Of a stretch of DNA of 64,000 nucleotides, positions 143-12,215 are shown in pieces. The first letter of the stretch is position 1, and the number at the start of each line of letters is the position of its first letter. Origin of the DNA: Ezakiella massiliensis. GTDB lineage: Bacteria; Bacillota; Clostridia; Tissierellales; Peptoniphilaceae. Made by a program: the position numbers and the translations under genes. The notes beneath the pieces are model-generated. The model was not told the DNA's origin and ran no database searches. It saw only the letters and a program-made list of their open reading frames with translations. The stretch lies in contig NZ_LT635475.1 in assembly GCF_900120165.1 (NCBI RefSeq), positions 1,612,001 through 1,676,000 on the forward strand, read 5' to 3'.

Positions 143-2023
143 ATGGAACAAGAATTAAACGAAATGCTTCAGATGAGGCGGGAAAAATTACAGAAACTAA
201 AAGACATGTATAAAAATCCATACGAAATTACAAATTACGACAGGACCCACTTTGCCAAAGATATCTTAGATAATTTTGATGACTATGAAGGTAAATACGT
301 ATCAATCGCCGGCAGGGTAATGGGCAAGCGTGGTCACGGAAAAGTCACTTTCCTTGACATCCTAGATTCAACTGGGACAATCCAATCCTTTGTAAGCCAA
401 AATAATTTGGGAGACGATTATGAAGAAGTAAAACTCCTTGACATCGGTGACATCATAGGCATCAAGGGCGAAGTTTTCAAGACCAAGATGGGAGAAATTT
501 CCGTACGCTGCGAAGAATTTGTTATTTTGACAAAATCCTTGCAAATCCTACCGGAAAAATTCCACGGCCTCAAGGACCCAGACCTCAGATACCGTCAAAG
601 ATATGTGGATTTGATTGTAAATCCAGAAATCAAAGAGACCTTTATCAAGAGAAATAAAATCTTAAAAGAAATAAGAAAATATTTGGACGATAGAGACTTC
701 CTAGAAGTTGAAACTCCAACCCTAAATACAATCGCAGGTGGTGCAAATGCAAGACCATTTATCACCCACCACAACACACTTGACATCGATATGTATTTGA
801 GAATTGCCAACGAGCTCTATCTAAAGAGATTGATCGTCGGTGGTTTTGACCGCGTATATGAAATGGGCAAGATGTTTAGAAACGAAGGTATGGACCAAAC
901 CCACAACCCAGAGTACACAGCTATCGAACTATACGCTGCATACGCAGATTACAAGGACATGATGGACATCACAGAAAATATGGTCTCCACCATTGCACAA
1001 AATGTTTTGGGCACACAAATCCTTGAATTCGATGGACTAAAACTTGATGTAACTCCACCATGGAGGAGAATTACAATGGTTGAAGCCATCAAAGAATATG
1101 CTGGCGTTGACTTTGAAGAAATAAAAACAGACGAAGAAGCAATTGCAATTGCCAAGGAAAAAGGCCTAGAGCTTGAACCATCCAAGATGGATAGGGGCAA
1201 TATCATCAACGAATTCTTTGAAGAATTCTGCGAAGACCACATGATCCAACCAACCTTTGTCACCCACCATCCAGTAGAGGTAAGTCCGCTGGCTAAACGC
1301 GACCCAGCAGACCCACGCTACACACAAAGGTTTGAAGCATTTATGGCCACCAAGGAAATTGCAAACGCCTTTACAGAATTAAACGACCCAATCGACCAAC
1401 GCGCCAGATTTACAGCGCAAATGGAAGCCAAGAATCTTGGCGATGACGAAGCTCATCCAATGGATGAAGACTTCTTAAACGCAATTGAAGTTGGCCTCCC
1501 ACCAACAGGAGGACTGGGCATCGGTGTCGATAGACTTATCATGTTCTTAACTGGCGAAGTTTCAATTAGGGACGTAATCTTGTTTCCGACAATGAAGCCA
1601 ATAGGCTTAGAAAAGGCAAGCACAGAAGCCATCAAGGCAGAAAAACTCGACCTATCAAAAGTAAAAGTCGAACCACTCTTTGAAGATATGGTTGACTTTG
1701 AAAAATTCTCTGAATCAGATTTCAGAGTTGTAAAGGTCAAGGCTTGCGAAGAAGTTCCAAAGTCCAATAAATTATTGCAATTTACCCTTGATGATGGATC
1801 AGGCACTGACAGGACAATCCTATCAGGCATCAAAAACTTCTACTCCGCCGACGAACTTGTGGGCAAGACCCTTCTTGCAATTACAAACCTCCCACCAAGA
1901 AAAATGATGGGCGTAGAATCATGCGGCATGCTCCTATCAGCAGTCTGCGACTACGACGGAGAAGAAAAACTAAATTTGATCATGCTAGATGAAAACATCC
2001 CAGCAGGATCAAAAATTTATTAA
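143..2023 (+). CDS. lysS: Lysyl-tRNA synthetase, class II, with C-terminal tRNA-binding domain
   Basis: This 626-residue enzyme charges tRNA-Lys. The order is an OB-fold anticodon-binding domain (about 50-155), then the class II catalytic core with motif 2 near residue 242 ([20 protein letters not shown]) and motif 3 near 456 ([13 protein letters not shown]). An additional domain from about 516 ([18 protein letters not shown]...SGIKNFY...[10 protein letters not shown]) resembles the EMAP-II/MetRS-beta tRNA-binding fold. Bacterial LysRS is usually about 490-510 residues, so this extension is an added module. The start is ATG 143 behind AGGAGG at 133-138. The last 17 codons and the terminator are duplicated at 7097-7206. 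Confidence 0.95.
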
Positions 2024-2081
2024 AGAACACGCTAATTATGAAACTGGGGTTTGTTATGAATCCCAGTTTAATTTTTATAAT
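1972..2081 (+). repeat. Direct repeat copy 1: lysS 3' end plus terminator
   Basis: This 110-bp block covers the last 17 codons of lysS, its stop and its terminator. It recurs at 7097-7206 (offset 5125) with three differences, at 1976, 1978 and 2017. All three fall in the coding part and are synonymous. Sequence diverges immediately outside both copies. It behaves like the left end of an inserted segment. Confidence 0.9.
2041..2078 (+). terminator. Rho-independent terminator of lysS
   Basis: AAACTGGG (2041-2048) pairs with CCCAGTTT (2062-2069), followed by ATTTTTAT. The same hairpin recurs at 7166-7194 in the second lysS-tail copy. Confidence 0.85.
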
Positions 2082-2253
2082 GAAGATTGAAAATTGATAA
2101 AAAACGTTAGTGACTCTACATTGAAATAAATTAGCTGATCTAAGCAGGGCAGGTTTTTATGTTGCGGTCATAAGTGCCAGACATAGTATAGCTATTATGT
2201 TTGAAAGAAATTTTTTCAATAGATTTCAAAGGTTAATGTATGAGAGGGTTAGA

Positions 2254-4493: not shown

Positions 4494-6918
4494 GAAGAAT
4501 TTTCCTATTTTTATCTCATTATTTATTGTAAGTCTATTTTTTACTGTGGTTTTTTATTATGGATACAGAAGTTTGAGAGCTAACTATGGTTATTACATGG
4601 CTTCAAGCTTTTATCATGGAGAGATTAAAGAAGAACTTTCAAATGAAGATGTTGAAAAGTTAAAATCCATTGAAGATATAGACTTGGTCGGAAAAATGTC
4701 TCTTAATCCTGATAATGGAAAACTTGCTGACGATTTAGTCGTTATTAACTACCAAGACGAAGCAATCAATAAGATGAGAGAGTATTCAAGACTTATTGAA
4801 GGCAGATTTGCTACAAAGGAAGCCGAAATTGTACTATCTAAAAGCCTCGTAGAGAAAAATAAACTTAAAATAGGCGATCGTGTAGAACTTGATTTAGGCA
4901 AAAGGTTGTTAGACGGAGAAGAGATAGGCCCCACAAGTGCAAATACTGACAGGGAAAAGTTTGAGAGCCAAGGTTCTAAGAGTTTTAATTTAGTTGGTGT
5001 TTATGGAGATGTCTACAACAAGTACAGCAAACTAAGTTTTGCCTTAGGTCTACAAGATAAAATGACCGGTTTCAGAACCTTTGTAAAATTTCATTCATTT
5101 AAGGAAGCTTATAGAGATAGAGATAAAATTCAAGCAGAAATCAATCTGACTTTGGGCAAAAAAGTTACTTTAGAATTTTCTGAAAGTCTTATAAACTATT
5201 ATGGAGTAGAAAACGAACCCTTACAAGATATAATGAGCCAGGCTGTTCTTGTTCTATCAGTTCTTGGATGCATAGCGATCTTTGTGTTTTTTATAAAAAA
5301 CATCTTTTGGGTTTGGGGGCTTAGGAAGATTAGAGAGCTTTCCATTTATAAGTCTATAGGATCTACCAATGGACAAATTTATCTCTTACTTCTAAAGGAA
5401 GGACTTATTATAACTGCAATTCCAATACTCTTGGGACACATTGCAGGATTTTTCTTTATGTATTGTTTGTATAAAAACATAACAATAGGTGAAGGAGTAA
5501 GTGCCTTTGAAGTTATAAAATTTAATCCCTTATTAAGTTTATCAATACTTTTGGTTTCTTTTATCATTGTGGCACTAGCTATTAAATCCCCTGCGAAAAA
5601 GATTTCTAAAATAAACATTATAGACGGCATAAGAGGGAATATAGATTTTTCAAAATCAAAGAAGAAAAGAGTCAAAGATTTTTGGAAAGAATTAAAACTC
5701 AATAACTTAGCTTCAATAAAATCACAGAGATATATTTCTGCAATAGGAATAATTATAATTTCAGTGTTTATAATCATCATAGGTATCTCAAGTTACTACA
5801 GAGATTTTTCGTTTTACGATGATGGCTATAATTTCTCTGTTGATTATTTTAGTGAAAACAACCAAGTCCCAAAAATATTAAAAGAAATTGTAGATAAAAT
5901 CCCCAACGACAAGTCTTATATTTCAAAAGATAAATATGTTCAAGTGGAAAATACAAATGAATTCTCAAAAGAAGCAAAGTCAGCTGGATTAGACGAGGAA
6001 GCGAAAAAGAATATAAAAAAATATAAGACAGAGGGTATGGATGGATTTATCATCGCCTTGGAAGAAAAAGACTTAAGAGAACTTGGAGGAAAGAAGGGCG
6101 AATTTATTCTCTACAATACAATTCAAGAAGATTCTTCTATTCCAATAGCTAAGGCAAAGAGAATTCCATATTTTGAAAACCCACAGACTTTAGATATTAA
6201 CTTAAATGATTATAAGAAGACTATTAAAATTTCAAAGGCAATAACAGATTTGGGAAAATATAAGTCGAGAACAAGACCATTTGATGTAAAAGTTTATACA
6301 GATTTTGACACTTATTTTAAACTTATGGAAGAAGCAGGTGATGAGAAATACAAAAATTATGCCTATACATTAAATATGAAGATAAAAGATTCGGATACCA
6401 AAGATGTAAAAGAATATGTAGAGGCCATGATTAGAAGTAAAATTTCACCAGAAGATCGCTTTAATATCATAACAGGTGAGGAAACAGCAAAAAATGAATA
6501 TAATGATTTGAAAAGTCTAATAAAAATTGTAATAGGGATTGCATCAATCATCTTTGTACTAAATATCACCAATGGCTACTCATCTATTAATTTAAGTCTC
6601 ATGAGCAGAAAAAAAGAAATCGGAAGTCTTTACTCTTGTGGAATGGATGTAGATGAGTTAAAGAGTATTTATCAAAAGGAATTTATTGGAGAGCAGGTAA
6701 AGTCCTTTACTATTTCTATTATTGTGAGTTTAGGAGTTATGTTTGTAATATCATTAATAGCTCCTGATTTAAGAATGAGTACTCTAATAAAATATTATGA
6801 CTATAAAAGTTTCTTAGGATTTTCATTAGTCGTCTATGGTATTAATCTAATCATCTATCATTTTTCTTTAAAGAGAATTTTAGACAGACCGACTATAGAT
6901 TTAATTCGAACAATATAA
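4477..6918 (+). CDS. FtsX-like ABC permease with two MacB/FtsX modules
   Basis: This 813-residue membrane protein has an N-terminal membrane helix (about 8-28), an extracytoplasmic domain to about 250, three helices, a second single helix (about 410-432, IIIISVFIIIIGI), a second extracytoplasmic domain, and three C-terminal helices. This is a duplicated MacB_PCD-FtsX layout. It partners the preceding ATPase. The arrangement differs from classical BceB, which has one large loop between helices VII and VIII, so bacitracin specificity should not be assumed. ATG 4477 and ATG 4486 are both possible starts. Antimicrobial-peptide export or immunity is an inference from context. Confidence 0.88.
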   Translation: MKKMNKKNFPIFISLFIVSLFFTVVFYYGYRSLRANYGYYMASSFYHGEIKEELSNEDVEKLKSIEDIDLVGKMSLNPDNGKLADDLVVINYQDEAINKMREYSRLIEGRFATKEAEIVLSKSLVEKNKLKIGDRVELDLGKRLLDGEEIGPTSANTDREKFESQGSKSFNLVGVYGDVYNKYSKLSFALGLQDKMTGFRTFVKFHSFKEAYRDRDKIQAEINLTLGKKVTLEFSESLINYYGVENEPLQDIMSQAVLVLSVLGCIAIFVFFIKNIFWVWGLRKIRELSIYKSIGSTNGQIYLLLLKEGLIITAIPILLGHIAGFFFMYCLYKNITIGEGVSAFEVIKFNPLLSLSILLVSFIIVALAIKSPAKKISKINIIDGIRGNIDFSKSKKKRVKDFWKELKLNNLASIKSQRYISAIGIIIISVFIIIIGISSYYRDFSFYDDGYNFSVDYFSENNQVPKILKEIVDKIPNDKSYISKDKYVQVENTNEFSKEAKSAGLDEEAKKNIKKYKTEGMDGFIIALEEKDLRELGGKKGEFILYNTIQEDSSIPIAKAKRIPYFENPQTLDINLNDYKKTIKISKAITDLGKYKSRTRPFDVKVYTDFDTYFKLMEEAGDEKYKNYAYTLNMKIKDSDTKDVKEYVEAMIRSKISPEDRFNIITGEETAKNEYNDLKSLIKIVIGIASIIFVLNITNGYSSINLSLMSRKKEIGSLYSCGMDVDELKSIYQKEFIGEQVKSFTISIIVSLGVMFVISLIAPDLRMSTLIKYYDYKSFLGFSLVVYGINLIIYHFSLKRILDRPTIDLIRTI

Positions 6919-7096: not shown

Positions 7097-7206
7097 AAAT
7101 CTAATCATGCTAGATGAAAACATCCCAGCAGGATCAAAAATCTATTAAAGAACACGCTAATTATGAAACTGGGGTTTGTTATGAATCCCAGTTTAATTTT
7201 TATAAT
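7097..7206 (+). repeat. Direct repeat copy 2: truncated lysS tail plus terminator
   Basis: Near-identical to 1972-2081. It encodes the same final 17 LysS residues ([16 protein letters not shown] and flank) with synonymous changes, then the same terminator. No further lysS sequence lies upstream. The 5015 bases between the copies hold the two-component/ABC module, so this is the candidate right end of an insertion at the lysS 3' end. Confidence 0.9.
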
Positions 7207-7257
7207 AAACCTATTTATGTTATAATTATTAAAGAAGGAAAACATTTTATACTTTAA

Positions 7258-7792: not shown

Positions 7793-8114
7793 ATATCGGT
7801 TAAAATTAGGCTGAGGAAATGGGGAATTTCTATGCCTTTTACAGATGATTCAAATGGATGATACTTTTTCGGCACTTCTAATATAGTGAGTTCTGTGATA
7901 TACTTACTCTAAATTAGGAATAATACACCGCTTGTTCGGATGTAGTGTGACGATTGCACTTATACGTCAGAAGCCCAAAAGATTGACGTATCTCATCGTC
8001 CATTTCGCAAAGAATTGACGGTCAACGACGACATTCCGCAAGGAATCTCAGTCCCTAAAGGTGAACCTACCATGATCAGTTTGCCTGAGCTATAAAAAAT
8101 GCCAGAATTATTGA
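7793..8114. other. Gene-free accessory stretch with an unidentified C-terminal fragment
   Basis: No intact gene is visible. From 7946 to 8095 a higher-GC frame, cut off upstream by TAG 7943-7945, encodes about 49 residues ending ISVPKGEPTMISLPEL and looks like the tail of a lost protein. The rest shows nothing convincing. Confidence 0.5.
7946..8095 (+). pseudogene. C-terminal protein fragment, unidentified
   Basis: The frame reads CDDCTYTSEAQKIDVSHRP, then RKELTVNDDIPQGISVPKG, then EPTMISLPEL, stop at 8093-8095. Base composition is richer in G+C than the flanks, and the amino-acid pattern looks like genuine protein rather than chance. It contains a CxxC but I do not recognise the family. It precedes thioredoxin-like and CopZ-like genes, so a metal-related cassette that has lost its first gene is possible. 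Confidence 0.35.
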
Positions 8115-8534
8115 GGTATACAAAATGGAACTGAAAAGGTTAGTAGTATAACAAGCAAATTTAATATACTTGCGATTGGAGAAAACTGGTGTATTGATTC
8201 TATAATTAATATTCCTGTAGTTCATTGGTTAGAAAAAAACAATGAAAATATAAAACTTAAAGTAATAGATACAGATAGTTACAGTAAGTTTATGCCTAAT
8301 GAAAAAGTTATTACACCAACATTTATTATTATGAATCAAGAATATCAGGAGATAGGGAAATGGGTTCAATATCCTAAAAGAATAATAGATGTGGTTGAAT
8401 CTAAGGACCAAGTTCGAATTATAGTAGAGAAAAGGAGATACCGACAGGGAGAATATATTGTAGATACATTGGAAGAGGTATTAGATATCCTGATTAACTA
8501 TAGTAATAATATTTATTCAGAAAGGAGGAAATAA
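8115..8534 (+). pseudogene. Thioredoxin-family protein lacking a normal start
   Basis: The frame is open from 8115 (TGA at 8112-8114) to TAA 8532-8534 and encodes a thioredoxin-like fold: NILAIGENWCIDSIINIP..., then VITPTFIIMNQEYQEIGKWV. The redox motif is WCIDS, with Ser in place of the second Cys. The N-terminal helix expected of this family is missing and there is no in-frame ATG/GTG/TTG before the active site; the first ATG (8292) lies after it. It is therefore probably 5'-truncated or frameshifted. It sits directly before the CopZ-like gene, a pairing seen in metal-handling clusters. Translation from 8292 would give 80 residues without the active site. Confidence 0.65.
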
Positions 8535-8535
8535 A

Positions 8536-9036
8536 GTGAATCAAGAAAATAAGATAAATCAATCTTGCTGAGGTTCAATACAAAAAACCACTGGTACAGT
8601 GGAAGAAAAAGCAAATTGCCCCAAATGTCACAAAATAGGAGAAAAGGTTAAGAATATAACTGTAAAGCATATGGTATCAGAAAACCTTATGGGAAAGGTT
8701 GTAGATGAAGAAACTTACTATTTATGTATGAATGAAGATTGTGATGTCGTGTATTATAACTTAAACAATGAAAGAGTTTTTTATAAGGAAGATGTAAAAG
8801 TTCCTATATGGTTTAAAAAGGATGCAAATCCCAAATATATATGCTATTGCAACCAAGTTACAGAGCAACAAATTATAAACGCTGTTTTAGATGATGGTGC
8901 AAAGAATATTAAAGATATTATTAGACTTACAGGGGCAATGAAAAATGGAAAGTGCGAAATTAACAATCCTTTGGGAAAATGCTGTAGTCCTTTTATTCAA
9001 GAAACCATCAATAAGGCATTAAAAAGCAAACAATAG
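8536..9036 (+). CDS. CopZ-like [2Fe-2S] protein, predicted selenoprotein (Cys11-Sec12)
   Basis: GTG 8536 has AAAGGAGG seven bases upstream. The frame reads MNQENKINQSC, then TGA (8569-8571), then GSIQKTTGTVEEKANCPKC and continues to TAG 9034-9036. Read as selenocysteine, the product is 166 residues. Features are Cys11-Sec12, a CPKC zinc-type motif, a conserved KNITVKHMV/YYLCMNEDCDVVYY core, and a C-terminal BFD-like domain (ICYCNQVT...GKCEINNPLGKCC) expected to hold a [2Fe-2S] cluster. Archaeal CopZ with this layout is a copper chaperone/reductase. A hairpin with a GG-starting loop follows the TGA at SECIS spacing. The alternative, reinitiation at GTG 8599, has no ribosome site and falls inside the hairpin. 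Confidence 0.75.
8569..8602 (+). promoter_or_regulatory. UGA codon and bacterial SECIS-like hairpin
   Basis: After TGA (8569-8571) come 16 unpaired bases, then CCACT (8588-8592), loop GGTAC (8593-8597) and AGTGG (8598-8602). The stem is perfect. The loop opens with GG, and the first G lies 21 bases after the UGA, inside the 16-37 range reported for bacterial SECIS elements recognised by SelB. Confidence 0.7.
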
Positions 9037-9177
9037 TTTGCGACACATAATTTATAAAGTACGTCACAACAGTAATAAAATTAAAAATAATAAAAAACTA
9101 TAGAATTAAAATTTTAACTGTTCAGATGTAAAAGTCTGGGTCGCTTTTTTATTTTTCCCGGAAAGGAGGTCACCTAT

Positions 9178-9213
9178 ATGGTAAATGATGGAGTTAGGTT
9201 AAATGAAAAATAA
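9178..9213 (+). CDS. Possible 11-residue leader peptide overlapping the lipoprotein start
   Basis: ATG 9178 follows a near-perfect AAAGGAGGTCACC and encodes MVNDGVRLNEK before TAA 9211-9213. The lipoprotein ATG (9203) lies inside it in another frame with no good ribosome site of its own. Translation of the lipoprotein is therefore probably coupled to the leader. It may also be the surviving start of a lost gene. Confidence 0.4.
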   Translation: MVNDGVRLNEK

Positions 9214-9721
9214 AAACAGGAAAAATTTAATAATAGTGACTTTAATGATAGGGTTGATATTTATAACTTCTTGTTCTAAAGAAAAAAATGTTAAAAGTGA
9301 AGAGTTTCATTTGTTTAAAGAAGAGATGTCATCAAATAAAAAAATAGGTGTGATTCAAATAAAATTTTTAAGACCATCCTTATATATTAATTTTGTTACA
9401 TCTGAAAATTTTAAAATTAATGATGTAAAAAAAGTAATAGATAAATTAAAACCATTCATAAATACCAATCACATGGATGAAATTGCAAGTAAATATTGGG
9501 AAAAAGATTCAAAAGTATCTACTGTATATATATCTTTTTATAATGGGAAAATAGATAAGAATGACACAAGAAAGAATCTCGTGTATAGTATATATACAAA
9601 GTATTATAAAACTCATGTTGTTGATGACAATCCTTTAAATATAGATGCTTATAGCACATGGTTTATAGAAGTTGATGGGAATGAATATCAACTTGAGGAT
9701 TACTTAGACGGAGATTATTAA
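9203..9721 (+). CDS. Putative lipoprotein, unknown function
   Basis: A 172-residue protein with a signal peptide and lipobox ending at Cys24 (LIFITSC), so it should be anchored on the outer face of the membrane. The mature part is lysine-rich and hydrophilic, with repeated IKFLRPSLYINFV- and STVYISFYNGK-like beta-strand patterns but no known domain that I recognise. Codon use is very A+T-rich. It lies in accessory DNA between the CopZ-like gene and an acetyltransferase, downstream of a short overlapping leader frame that holds the strong ribosome site. Confidence 0.6.
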   Translation: MKNKNRKNLIIVTLMIGLIFITSCSKEKNVKSEEFHLFKEEMSSNKKIGVIQIKFLRPSLYINFVTSENFKINDVKKVIDKLKPFINTNHMDEIASKYWEKDSKVSTVYISFYNGKIDKNDTRKNLVYSIYTKYYKTHVVDDNPLNIDAYSTWFIEVDGNEYQLEDYLDGDY

Positions 9722-9723
9722 AA

Positions 9724-9867
9724 TTGGTATATTTTTATCTAAGAGTAGTAAGACATTTCTTGTCTGATAAATTTGATATTACAAAGCATAAGAATTACAA
9801 GTTATTTGAATATTATGATGAGAGAAATGTTTTTGATATTGAAAAGTATGTTACACGAAAAGGGTAA
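9724..9867 (+). pseudogene. Short orphan fragment, unidentified
   Basis: A 47-codon frame from TTG 9724, three bases after the lipoprotein stop. It reads VVRHFLSDKFDITKHKNY, then KLFEYYDERNVFDIEKYV, then TRKG. The composition is protein-like, but there is no ribosome site and no recognised domain. It is probably the tail of a deleted gene. Confidence 0.3.
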
Positions 9868-9990
9868 AGCTATGATAAATAGTAATACAGTGATAACAAG
9901 ATTGTAATATTTACTGTAAGAGTCTACACATGCGAGGGACTATATAATATAATAGAATTAGATAAGTTAGAATTTGAGGGGGATGTTGAA

Positions 9991-10461
9991 ATGATATTCA
10001 TTCAGGAGATACCTGTTTCAAAAATCAACGAGTATTGGGACATTCAGTTTCAGTATTTGGTAAATGACGGGTTTTTAACGACGGAGGAAGAAAAGAAATA
10101 CTTCCAGAGCGCGGAGTATCGAGATGTATTGCAAAGTCATATGTTGCGCACTCCGGACACTCAACACATGGTATATTTTGTGCGTGACGGAGTTAAAATA
10201 GGCGCTTCTCAGTACTGCACTTACAAAAGCGAGGACGGAAAATGTTTCATCCTTGATTTTTGGGTGTTCCCAGAGTATAGAGGGAACGGGACAGGACACA
10301 AATGTTTTCAAACGCTTATGGAATATACAAAAAACGACGGCGCAATTTATTACGCCCTTAACTACGCAAAAGAGGATTCGCATAGATTTTGGGAATCACT
10401 TGGTTTCTCTGACAATGGAATAGATGAATACGGCTTGCCATTGATGATAAAAAGAGATTAA
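9991..10461 (+). CDS. GNAT-family N-acetyltransferase
   Basis: A 156-residue acetyltransferase that transfers acetyl from acetyl-CoA to an unidentified amine. Motif A is visible as ILDFWVFPEYRGNGTGHKCF (acetyl-CoA pyrophosphate loop R-G-N-G-T-G), followed by the C-terminal ALNYAKEDSHRFWESLGF strand typical of the fold. GAGGGGG precedes ATG 9991. Codons are noticeably richer in G and C than those of the preceding lipoprotein (for example GACGGAGTT, GCGGAGTAT), suggesting a separate origin. A terminator follows; no operon partners. Confidence 0.85.
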   Translation: MIFIQEIPVSKINEYWDIQFQYLVNDGFLTTEEEKKYFQSAEYRDVLQSHMLRTPDTQHMVYFVRDGVKIGASQYCTYKSEDGKCFILDFWVFPEYRGNGTGHKCFQTLMEYTKNDGAIYYALNYAKEDSHRFWESLGFSDNGIDEYGLPLMIKRD

Positions 10462-10505
10462 CAAATCTCAGTTTGTCGAGCCAAATAATTAAATGGAAAC
10501 GCAAG

Positions 10506-10540
10506 AGATGATAGATAATTAAACTCTATCGTCTTTTTTT
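10506..10540 (+). terminator. Terminator after the acetyltransferase
   Basis: AGATGATAG (10506-10514) pairs with CTATCGTCT (10526-10534, one G-T pair), then seven T residues. Confidence 0.8.
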
Positions 10541-10565
10541 GTAATGAAATGTACAAGTAGAAAAC

Positions 10566-10639
10566 TTATACAGGATAAGCTTTTTATGGTATAATAAAAT
10601 CAATGTTAGTGGATTAAAATATTTAAGCCAGACCACTAA
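10566..10639 (+). promoter_or_regulatory. Promoter and leader hairpin of the ABC exporter pair
   Basis: TATAAT at 10590-10595 with a weak -35 (TTATAC, 10566-10571) 18 bases upstream. Just after the likely start site, TTAGTGG (10606-10612) pairs with CCACTAA (10633-10639) around a 20-base loop. The pairing is close enough to the start site to act as an operator or 5' stabilising hairpin. Confidence 0.45.
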
Positions 10640-10655
10640 TCGATAGGAGCGAATT

Positions 10656-12215
10656 ATGATTAGAGAAAAATATAAAAAGAATTTTTCTAAAATTTTATTA
10701 TTATTTATAACAGGGATAATAGTGGGGAGTCTAAGCATTTTCCCCATGGTCTTTATTCAAAAGGTAATCGACTACTTAACCATAGGCAATCAAAGTGAAT
10801 TTATAAAATACATAATCCTGTATTCACTGGTCTATATTTTGGTCAATATGTTCAAGATTGCCCTTGTTAATTTTGGTTCAAAATTTGAGCTGAATCTTAA
10901 TAGAGAAATAAGAGACGAGATTGTTGAAAATATCCTGAGCACAAAGATTGGTCTCTTGGAAAAAGCTGGCCACTCAAATGTTTTTAATGTTATAATTGAC
11001 GATTTAAAAGCCCTTGATGACAAGCTCATCCCCTTGGTTTTTGATTTGGGCTTTTCAATATCAAGCTTTGTCATCGGGTCAATCATAATAATAAAATACG
11101 ACTACATTATGCTCTTTGCAATGATTGCCATTTCTGCTATCTCAACCCTTGTTATTCAAAAGATTTTAAACAAATCAGAAATGGCGTCTGAGAGGAGCCA
11201 AATTCAAAGGCTAAATGTTATAAATAAGTTTTTTGACATAATTATAGGTGCTAGGGACATTAAATTATTTAACAAAGAAGAAGTTTTTACCAGTGACTTC
11301 CACCAAGAAAATCACGAGCTAAATGTCTTGGATAAAAAAATCGTAAATATAAAAAATATTTCTCAAGCCCTGGTCAGTTTGCTCTTTAATTTAATTATGG
11401 CAACTTTGATTTTGATTGGCGGCCTCCGTGTTAGTCAGGGTAGTCTGTCGGTTGGTGCATTGATCGCAATTATCTTGTATGCATCGATGATTACCGATCC
11501 AATTTTTAATATAATAGAAAATCAAAAAGAAATATCTGCCTTCAAAAATTCGGTTAAGAGGATTGATGAAACCTTCAAGAGAATAGAAAAAGAAGATGTA
11601 AATTTAATCGAAGATTTTAAGACCATTGAATTTAAAGATGTCTCTTTAAATTATGGAGATAATCAGATTTTAAAAGATTTTAACTTGGTCATAAATAAGG
11701 GCGACAAATTAAAAATAAATGGAAGAACTGGGTCAGGTAAATCTACTCTGGCAAAATTAATTACCAATATGTACAAGCCGACCTCTGGTAAGATATATGT
11801 TGACGGCAAGGAAAATCAGACTATATCACTGTCAGCAGTTTTTCAAGAAAATAAATTGTTTAATATGTCTATCATTGACAACATAACTTTTAAATCCAAG
11901 GTGGACGAGGGCAAGCTAAATCAAATAATTAAAATTTGCAGGCTAGAAGAAGTCCTTGAAAAATATTCCGAAAACAAGATTGGCTTTGATTCCAGTACCT
12001 TATCGGGTGGTGAACGAACAAGAGTATTGCTAGCAAGAGCTCTTTACAAGGATTGCCAGCTCTATATTTTCGATGAAATAAGCACAGGCCTGGATGAAAG
12101 CCTCTTCTACGAGATCTTTGATGACCTCATGAATTACCTAGAAGCAAAGACAGTTATCAGCATCGACCATAAAAATATTAGCGAAAATTACTTCACAAAA
12201 AGTGTTTTTATGTAG
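10656..12215 (+). CDS. ABC exporter half-transporter (subunit 1)
   Basis: A 519-residue fused permease-ATPase. Six membrane helices occupy about 1-300. The ATPase follows with Walker A NGRTGSGKSTLAKL, Q-loop VFQENKLF, signature LSGGERTRVLLARAL, Walker B LYIFDEISTGLD and H-loop SIDH. All catalytic residues are present. Together with the next gene, 33 bases downstream, it should form a heterodimeric exporter of the type used for peptides, lipids or drugs; the cargo is unknown. GATAGGAGC precedes ATG 10656. Confidence 0.85.
   Translation: MIREKYKKNFSKILLLFITGIIVGSLSIFPMVFIQKVIDYLTIGNQSEFIKYIILYSLVYILVNMFKIALVNFGSKFELNLNREIRDEIVENILSTKIGLLEKAGHSNVFNVIIDDLKALDDKLIPLVFDLGFSISSFVIGSIIIIKYDYIMLFAMIAISAISTLVIQKILNKSEMASERSQIQRLNVINKFFDIIIGARDIKLFNKEEVFTSDFHQENHELNVLDKKIVNIKNISQALVSLLFNLIMATLILIGGLRVSQGSLSVGALIAIILYASMITDPIFNIIENQKEISAFKNSVKRIDETFKRIEKEDVNLIEDFKTIEFKDVSLNYGDNQILKDFNLVINKGDKLKINGRTGSGKSTLAKLITNMYKPTSGKIYVDGKENQTISLSAVFQENKLFNMSIIDNITFKSKVDEGKLNQIIKICRLEEVLEKYSENKIGFDSSTLSGGERTRVLLARALYKDCQLYIFDEISTGLDESLFYEIFDDLMNYLEAKTVISIDHKNISENYFTKSVFM

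What the first reader, a model, noticed from the sequence alone, without database searches (positions are those of the whole stretch)
8536..9036. Candidate selenoprotein: CopZ-like [2Fe-2S] protein with Cys-Sec and a SECIS-like hairpin
Seen: a strong ribosome site and GTG 8536 precede an in-frame TGA (8569-8571), and the frame continues without break for 155 more codons into a clear CopZ/BFD-like protein. The TGA lies directly after a Cys codon (SC-U-GS). The hairpin CCACT-GGTAC-AGTGG starts 16 bases later and its GG-initial loop is 21 bases from the UGA. Known: bacterial SECIS elements need a small hairpin with a G in the first loop positions 16-37 nt after UGA. Inference: a Cys-Sec redox or metal-binding site on a copper/metal-handling Fe-S protein. 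I do not know of a described selenoprotein in this family.
Basis: partly seen in the sequence, partly recalled or inferred. Interest (0 to 1): 0.88.

Follow-up and report, generated by a model that had tools for sequence, protein, structure and literature searches.

The report
Known-family selenoprotein on mobile DNA
The gene very probably reads one UGA "stop" as selenocysteine, but its protein family is already listed in print as a selenoprotein; the fresher part is that nearly the same gene has moved between distant anaerobes, and a few copies have cysteine or glycine in place of the UGA.

Summary
TGA 8569-8571 interrupts a 166-codon frame (8536-9036) whose two parts belong together: the read-through protein passes NCBIfam NF045877 "Csac_0668 family 2Fe-2S cluster-binding (seleno)protein" (266.8 bits, cut-off 190). 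The genome (one contig, nearest Ezakiella) has tRNA-Sec (UCA), selA, selB and a selD with its own in-frame TGA. In 14 distinct UGA rows the hairpin sits in one register, with paired changes at 4 of 6 pairs; of 12 Cys relatives tested, one has a comparable hairpin in that register. So it is very probably a selenoprotein. The family is not new: two reviews list it. Not found in print: the allele series. Sixteen alleles at least 95.3% identical in DNA sit in eight genera and one MAG from two NCBI classes; 13 have TGA, two TGT (Cys), one GGA (Gly). All 16 hosts carry selB, although seven SelBs compared share only 36.5-43.7% identity with Ezakiella's. Likely role, inferred: metal or redox handling, with a flexible Cys-Sec arm on a CopZ-like core. 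No expression was tested.

The parts
8536..9036 (+). CDS of the Csac_0668-family (CopZ_Nterm_CU) selenoprotein, 166 residues with Sec at residue 12
   Evidence: NF045877 266.8 bits over residues 3-163; zf_CopZ 26-88; Fer2_BFD 101-140
8569..8571 (+). in-frame UGA, proposed selenocysteine codon, directly after Cys11
   Evidence: TGA in 13 of 16 near-identical alleles
8588..8602 (+). bacterial SECIS-like hairpin CCACTG-GUA-CAGUGG, 16 nt after the UGA, loop 22 nt after it
   Evidence: same register and covarying stem in UGA relatives
8524..8528 (+). Shine-Dalgarno GGAGG, 7 nt before GTG 8536; a GGAGG precedes the GTG in all 16 alleles
8133..8534 (+). 3' remnant of a Thioredoxin_9 gene (WCIDS motif), shared with Finegoldia from 8133 on, its stop ending 1 nt before the GTG; full length (175 aa) in Finegoldia
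   Evidence: L067 5472-5999, PF14595 111.7 bits
8459..9196 (+). 738-bp block shared whole with 8 of 15 other hosts (94.6-99.6% DNA identity) and over 520-724 bp with the other 7 (96.3-99.2%); its right end lies just inside the start of a gene that in other hosts is DUF3801-like
   Evidence: (listing printed before that script stopped)
7097..7209 (+). duplicate (96.5% over 113 bp) of the 3' end of lysS; looks like an attachment-site repeat (inference)
1972..2084 (+). 3' end of lysS (gene 143-2023) that is repeated at 7097-7209

Best explanation
8536-9036 is a genuine selenoprotein gene of the already described Csac_0668 / CopZ_Nterm_CU family. SelB, guided by the hairpin at 8588-8602, puts Sec in at UGA 8569. 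Shown by sequence: the family match, the Sec machinery, a conserved covarying hairpin, and Cys relatives. Inferred: the Cys11-Sec12 pair lies in a flexible N-terminal arm (residues 1-23) attached to a CopZ-N-terminal-like core with one zinc and one [2Fe-2S] site. It would act as a soft-metal-binding or redox arm that passes metal or electrons between the Fe-S centre and a partner, in metal resistance or metal-redox stress. The gene is carried on mobile DNA: a cassette that has moved between genera and between two NCBI classes, and all 16 hosts found have selB.
For: NF045877 266.8 bits with the UGA read through, cut-off 190. tRNA-Sec with UCA anticodon at G000:C1:182769; selD-selA-selB side by side at C1:282254-286539, selD itself with an in-frame TGA. 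TGA in 13 of 16 alleles at least 95.3% identical. Stem in 14 distinct UGA rows: 92.9% of 84 cells paired, 4 of 6 pairs changed on both sides, 11 cells with such a change; the paired percentage, the cell count and the covariation score are reached by 0 of 500 shuffles, and slid controls are far lower. Of 12 Cys relatives tested only L025 has a comparable hairpin in this register. Three genomes without selA, selB or a tRNA-Sec over cut-off (G024, G055, G060) carry only Cys forms. Core fold: 2HU9, TM 0.81 by target, 35% identity; residues 1-23 have pLDDT under 50. Metal context in Cys-form relatives: ArsR-type regulator and heavy-metal P-type ATPase genes within about 6 kb. Cassette 95.3-99.6% identical across hosts, while SelB of 7 hosts is 36.5-43.7% identical to Ezakiella's.
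Against: No expression, 75Se or mass-spectrometry evidence. The hairpin alone is not significant. Two other covariation measures are less striking: pairs changed on both sides are matched by 33 of 500 shuffles and further pair types by 389 of 500. Among UGA rows the hairpin is weak in L073 (-2.1 kcal/mol, 18% of shuffles as good), and L035 has it in another register and was left out of the count; Finegoldia G063 breaks the outermost pair. A Gly allele exists in a host with selA, selB and selD, so Sec may be dispensable. One relative has TGG (Trp) here (L126). Alternative codons among the 16 alleles are mostly nonsynonymous (30 of 41 in codons 23-164), which suggests weak constraint. I recognised no metal-transport gene beside it in the window (ORF lists, read by eye), and the metal context of relatives was seen only beside Cys forms.
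Confidence: 0.9

Rival explanations
1. The real start is GTG 8599 (145 residues); the UGA lies in leader sequence and is only a stop.
For: Automatic ORF calling gives exactly this, and several database homologues begin after the UGA position, e.g. P0006 and P0010.
Against: A GGAGG stands 7 nt before GTG 8536 and precedes that GTG in all 16 alleles, while I see none before 8599. The TGT and GGA alleles and nearly all Cys relatives have an open frame through this part. The hairpin covaries. NF045877 models this N-terminal part.
Confidence: 0.05
2. Recent pseudogene: a Cys codon was mutated to TGA and the hairpin is incidental, or is an intrinsic terminator of the opposite strand.
For: The pattern scan calls 8602-8588 a minus-strand terminator-like site followed by six T. 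Codon changes are nonsynonymous-heavy. The upstream thioredoxin gene is truncated here.
Against: The same TGA stands in 13 of 16 alleles and in more distant relatives; selB is present in every UGA host tested (the 13 here plus G030, G037, G082, G085, G095). The hairpin keeps pairing through paired changes in relatives with a shorter A run before it, and 11 of 12 Cys relatives tested have none comparable in that register.
Confidence: 0.04
3. UGA is read as tryptophan (another genetic code).
For: Metagenome entries such as P0002-P0005 show W at this position, and one Symbiobacterium relative (L126, 55% identity) has TGG there.
Against: TGA ends 5 of 49 non-overlapping ORFs of 150 codons or more in the window. 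A tRNA-Sec with UCA anticodon is present. Of the 80 loci, 60 have Cys-Cys and one Cys-Trp. The W entries are best explained by gene callers using a TGA=W table (inference). I did not search for a tRNA-Trp(UCA).
Confidence: 0.01

Closest known systems
NCBIfam NF045877 CopZ_Nterm_CU, 'Csac_0668 family 2Fe-2S cluster-binding (seleno)protein'; listed as '(2Fe-2S)-binding protein (copper chaperone CopZ family) form 2', motif CU, in PMC13188914 (passages seen), and as form 2 in PMC9312934 (passages and part of the reference list seen)
   Same: Family score over cut-off, the CU dyad, zf_CopZ plus BFD-like domains, Sec machinery in the genome
   Different: Nothing found in the protein itself; the mobile setting and the UGA/Cys/Gly allele series were not in the passages I saw
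Csac_0668 itself (PMC4510573, passages seen)
   Same: Re-annotated there as a BFD-domain [2Fe-2S] protein
   Different: That paper guesses a part in hydrogen production; the passages do not mention selenium
NCBIfam NF047645 CopZ_Nterm_CC, putative iron-sulfur cluster-binding metallochaperone
   Same: Matches over residues 10-150 (93.7 bits)
   Different: Below its cut-off of 100; by its name the Cys-Cys type
Archaeoglobus fulgidus CopZ N-terminal domain (PDB 2HU9)
   Same: Same fold; the conserved Cys residues align. Which Cys bind zinc and which the cluster is recalled, not checked
   Different: 2HU9 aligns from the CPxC on, without the CU arm; the window protein has no C-terminal HMA copper domain
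Streptococcal ICEs inserted in the 3' end of lysS (PMC4701971, abstract start and passages seen)
   Same: lysS 3'-end repeats; a Tn916-type integrase next to such a repeat in Mediannikoviicoccus L059
   Different: I recognised no integrase or conjugation gene near the repeats in the window's ORF list (by eye); only a remnant

Membership tests
NF045877 Csac_0668-family selenoprotein | score over the curated cut-off | tested here: met
   266.8 versus 190 bits
NF045877 Csac_0668-family selenoprotein | N-terminal Cys followed by Sec (UGA) or Cys | tested here: met
   SC-U-GS; 74 of 80 related loci have C-C or C-U
NF045877 Csac_0668-family selenoprotein | zinc-binding CopZ domain plus BFD-like [2Fe-2S] domain | tested here: met
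   PF18423 86.8 bits, PF04324 30.2 bits
Bacterial selenoprotein | selA, selB, selD and tRNA-Sec in the genome | tested here: met
   loop GUA 22 nt after the UGA; covariation. bSECISearch itself was not run
Bacterial selenoprotein | selenocysteine present in the protein | not testable with these tools
   needs 75Se labelling or mass spectrometry
CopZ copper chaperone (A. fulgidus type) | C-terminal HMA copper-binding domain (recalled) | tested here: not met
   no PF00403 match up to E 0.1
CopZ copper chaperone (A. fulgidus type) | copper binding and transfer | not testable with these tools
   needs purified protein

The most novel reading that the evidence does not exclude
This is a mobile selenoprotein cassette with a portable SECIS. 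One nearly identical gene plus hairpin has spread between genera and between two NCBI classes of anaerobes, only into hosts that can make Sec although their SelBs are highly diverged. There it forms a natural allele series (UGA, TGT-Cys, GGA-Gly) in which paired stem changes track UGA use.
Probability: 0.6. Interest if true: 0.58.

Novelty: new member of a known kind. Interest (0 to 1): 0.42.

Why it matters
The family itself is known, so this member adds little on its own. The allele series could matter: Sec, Cys and Gly versions of one protein, at least 95.3% identical in DNA, already exist in nature. With them one can ask what Sec adds to a metal/Fe-S protein, and how one hairpin is read by SelB proteins only 36.5-43.7% identical to that of Ezakiella. 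It also suggests that a selenoprotein gene can behave as mobile cargo. Mechanical ORF calling starts this gene at GTG 8599 and some metagenome entries write W at the UGA, so such genes are easily mis-annotated.

Tried and rejected
Rfam scans of the window (gathering scores) and of 7801-9201 (E up to 1) gave nothing, so no Rfam family supports the hairpin. No match in phage records. Three distant matches in viral contigs, 51-55% identity, were used only in the neighbour clustering. The plasmid search gave two partial matches: a Cys-form paralog on Anaerococcus plasmid pAPRE01 and a UGA form in a 2.6-Mb Acetoanaerobium record. I considered that hosts lacking Sec machinery had replaced the UGA; rejected, because both TGT hosts and the GGA host have selA, selB and selD. 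I considered a minus-strand terminator for the hairpin; disfavoured by covariation and by the Cys relatives. A test that hairpin decay follows loss of the UGA (a pair broken in 1 of 13 UGA and 2 of 3 non-UGA alleles) has too few cases. In one search the Cys relatives L079 (-4.5), L132 (-3.8) and L030 (-3.5) do have hairpins, but with loops 27-37 nt away; they were counted as not in the register. The tree of the 16 alleles is unrooted with weak nodes, so three separate losses of UGA is parsimony, not proof. PMC2398784, cited by the 2022 review for this entry, and PMC5029168, cited there for neighbouring entries, were searched in their main text only and do not hold the words CopZ, copper chaperone or 2Fe-2S, so I could not trace the first description. 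Searches for a report of the mobile cassette found none in their listings: (open-licence PMC only). The 53-nt fold z-score and the simple promoter scan (9 found, 8.0 expected) led nowhere.

Full report
What was checked. There are 154 sense codons after the UGA. The RNA fold prefers 6 bp with loop GUA, starting 22 nt after the UGA. Taken alone, the hairpin (z -0.71; 54 of 2334 TGAs in the window have one as good) and the open frame (6 such cases, this one included) would not convince.

What it is. Read through, the protein scores 266.8 bits against NCBIfam NF045877, 'Csac_0668 family 2Fe-2S cluster-binding (seleno)protein' (cut-off 190), with Pfam zf_CopZ and Fer2_BFD. The only PDB sequence match up to E 0.1 is 2HU9 (E 1.6e-21), the A. 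fulgidus CopZ N-terminal domain, which is also the best fold match (TM 0.81 by target length). 2HU9 aligns from about the CPxC at residue 28 onward. The CU pair (residues 11-12) therefore lies in an N-terminal arm, which the model leaves unstructured (residues 1-23 pLDDT under 50; modelled with C for U). C28, C31, C64, C69, C103, C105, C140, C149 and C150 are invariant in the 25 aligned sequences, the query among them. No HMA domain was found.

The host. The window lies in a 1.74-Mb single-contig genome. The genome holds tRNA-Sec with anticodon UCA, selB, selA and selD, the last three adjacent. selD carries its own in-frame TGA, a built-in comparison. TGA is also an ordinary stop here: 5 of 49 ORFs of 150 codons or more end in it.

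SECIS evidence. Fourteen distinct UGA-containing rows, aligned without gaps from the UGA, put the stem in one register: 92.9% of 84 cells paired, 4 of 6 pairs with changes on both sides, covariation score 0.419 against a shuffled mean of 0.269 (0 of 500 reach it) and at most 0.212 for slid versions. The number of pairs with double changes is matched by 33 of 500 shuffles, and the number of further pair types by 389 of 500. Related sequences can inflate the first scores; the slid control keeps relatedness. L035, a UGA relative whose hairpin lies a few bases nearer, was left out, and L073 has only a weak hairpin. Of 12 Cys relatives tested, L025 alone has a comparable hairpin in this register; it is a Cys paralog in a genome that also holds a UGA paralog, so it looks like a remnant. 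L079, L132 and L030 have hairpins elsewhere. Within the close clade a C-G pair became U-A through two amino-acid-changing substitutions in Peptoniphilus duerdenii and an Anaerococcus, and U-G in a Tissierellaceae MAG.

Position 12 in wider relatives. In the 80 loci, 60 have Cys-Cys, 14 Cys-UGA, one Cys-Gly, one Cys-Trp (TGG, L126), three no such dyad, and one is cut by its contig end. In wider samples the UGA form is the minority: 10 of 39 matches in 130 family genomes and 6 of 24 in 391 class genomes.

The allele series. Sixteen alleles share 95.3-99.6% DNA identity over 492 nt. Hosts by record title or matching contig length: Ezakiella (three, the window's own among them), Fenollaria (two), Finegoldia (two; G063 placed by its shared genus with G010), Anaerococcus (three), Peptoniphilus duerdenii, Lagierella, Mediannikoviicoccus, Oribacterium (two) and a Tissierellaceae MAG. 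NCBI puts Ezakiella in Tissierellia and Oribacterium in Clostridia, order Lachnospirales. Codon 12 is TGA in 13, TGT in 2 (Mediannikoviicoccus, Anaerococcus Q5996) and GGA in 1 (Lagierella). All 16 hosts have selB over the cut-off; in O. sinus the two matches cover only profile positions 1-365 of 581. For comparison, 12 of the 25 family genomes G000-G024 have selB over the cut-off. SelB of 7 other hosts is 36.5-43.7% identical to that of Ezakiella, so near-identity of the cassette means transfer, not shared descent. By contrast, of 8 genomes carrying the mobile Cys paralog or its close kin, selB is missing in G024, G055 and G060 and present in G010, G035, G041, G045 and G058.

Mobility. The shared block is the whole 738 bp (8459-9196) in 8 of 15 other hosts and shorter in 7; with Finegoldia it reaches 983 bp (8133-9115). 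In Finegoldia the upstream gene is a full Thioredoxin_9 protein; in the window its first part is missing. In 8 loci the block runs into a related downstream gene; in L066 its product carries DUF3801 fused to a type I restriction-subunit end, while the shorter L059 and L060 versions gave no significant Pfam match. In four loci a gene for a SEFIR-domain protein follows (L060 tested, PADLOC bSEFIR). In Mediannikoviicoccus, Lagierella and Anaerococcus P3625 the gene lies between two whole or partial copies of the lysS 3' region, with a Tn916-type integrase gene beside one copy in L059 and a relative of it in L061. In the window a 113-bp copy of the lysS end sits at 7097-7209, 1.3 kb upstream. lysS 3' ends are known ICE sites in streptococci (PMC4701971, passages). 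That the window block came in this way is inference.

Function. Some relatives, all of them Cys forms, stand within about 6 kb of ArsR-type regulator genes (8 loci) or heavy-metal P-type ATPase genes (7 loci); one member of each cluster was identified by Pfam. The window copy has no such neighbour that I recognised. I think a soft-metal or redox arm is most likely (about 0.5); the Gly allele warns that Sec may not be essential, and codon changes among the alleles are mostly nonsynonymous (30 of 41).

Known or new. PMC9312934 (passages and part of the reference list seen) and PMC13188914 (passages seen) list the family among prokaryotic selenoproteins, the latter as 'Csac_0668 family ... selenoprotein', motif CU. 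I found no paper on the mobile allele series in the listings.

Noticed in passing
most of L098-L131 (match 6001-6465 in most) and L180 4830-5309: A Cys-form (CCC) paralog of the same family is nearly identical in its N-terminal part across Prevotella, Porphyromonas, Veillonella, a Coriobacteriales, Gordonibacter and Peptoniphilaceae, and sits on conjugative plasmid pAPRE01: a very broadly mobile gene. In L100 a heavy-metal P-type ATPase follows at 8707-11040.
   Followed up: partly
window 1972-2084 and 7097-7209: The 3' end of lysS is repeated (96.5% over 113 bp), bracketing a two-component system and an ABC transporter; looks like an integration scar, with no integrase that I recognised.
   Followed up: partly
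L060 7032-7952: A SEFIR-domain protein (PADLOC bSEFIR, 241.6 bits) lies downstream of the selenoprotein cassette; related genes in four loci.
   Followed up: no
L025 and L040 (genome G085, contig C83): One genome holds a UGA and a Cys paralog about 27 kb apart; the Cys one keeps a hairpin like a SECIS remnant.
   Followed up: partly
L126, codons at 5962-5967: A Symbiobacterium relative has TGC TGG (Cys-Trp) at the dyad position.
   Followed up: no
L086 3887-3889: A Thermoanaerobacterium relative has an in-frame TGA two residues after a CCC motif, not at the usual Sec position.
   Followed up: no
L063 and L064: Oribacterium alleles have longer C-termini (173 and 185 residues instead of 166).
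   Followed up: no
P0002, P0004 and other metagenome proteins: Clusters of up to 1065 member sequences show W at the UGA position, probably gene callers using a TGA=W table.
   Followed up: no
window 9026-9041, minus strand: Terminator-like hairpin with T run at the 3' end of the gene, on the opposite strand.
   Followed up: no
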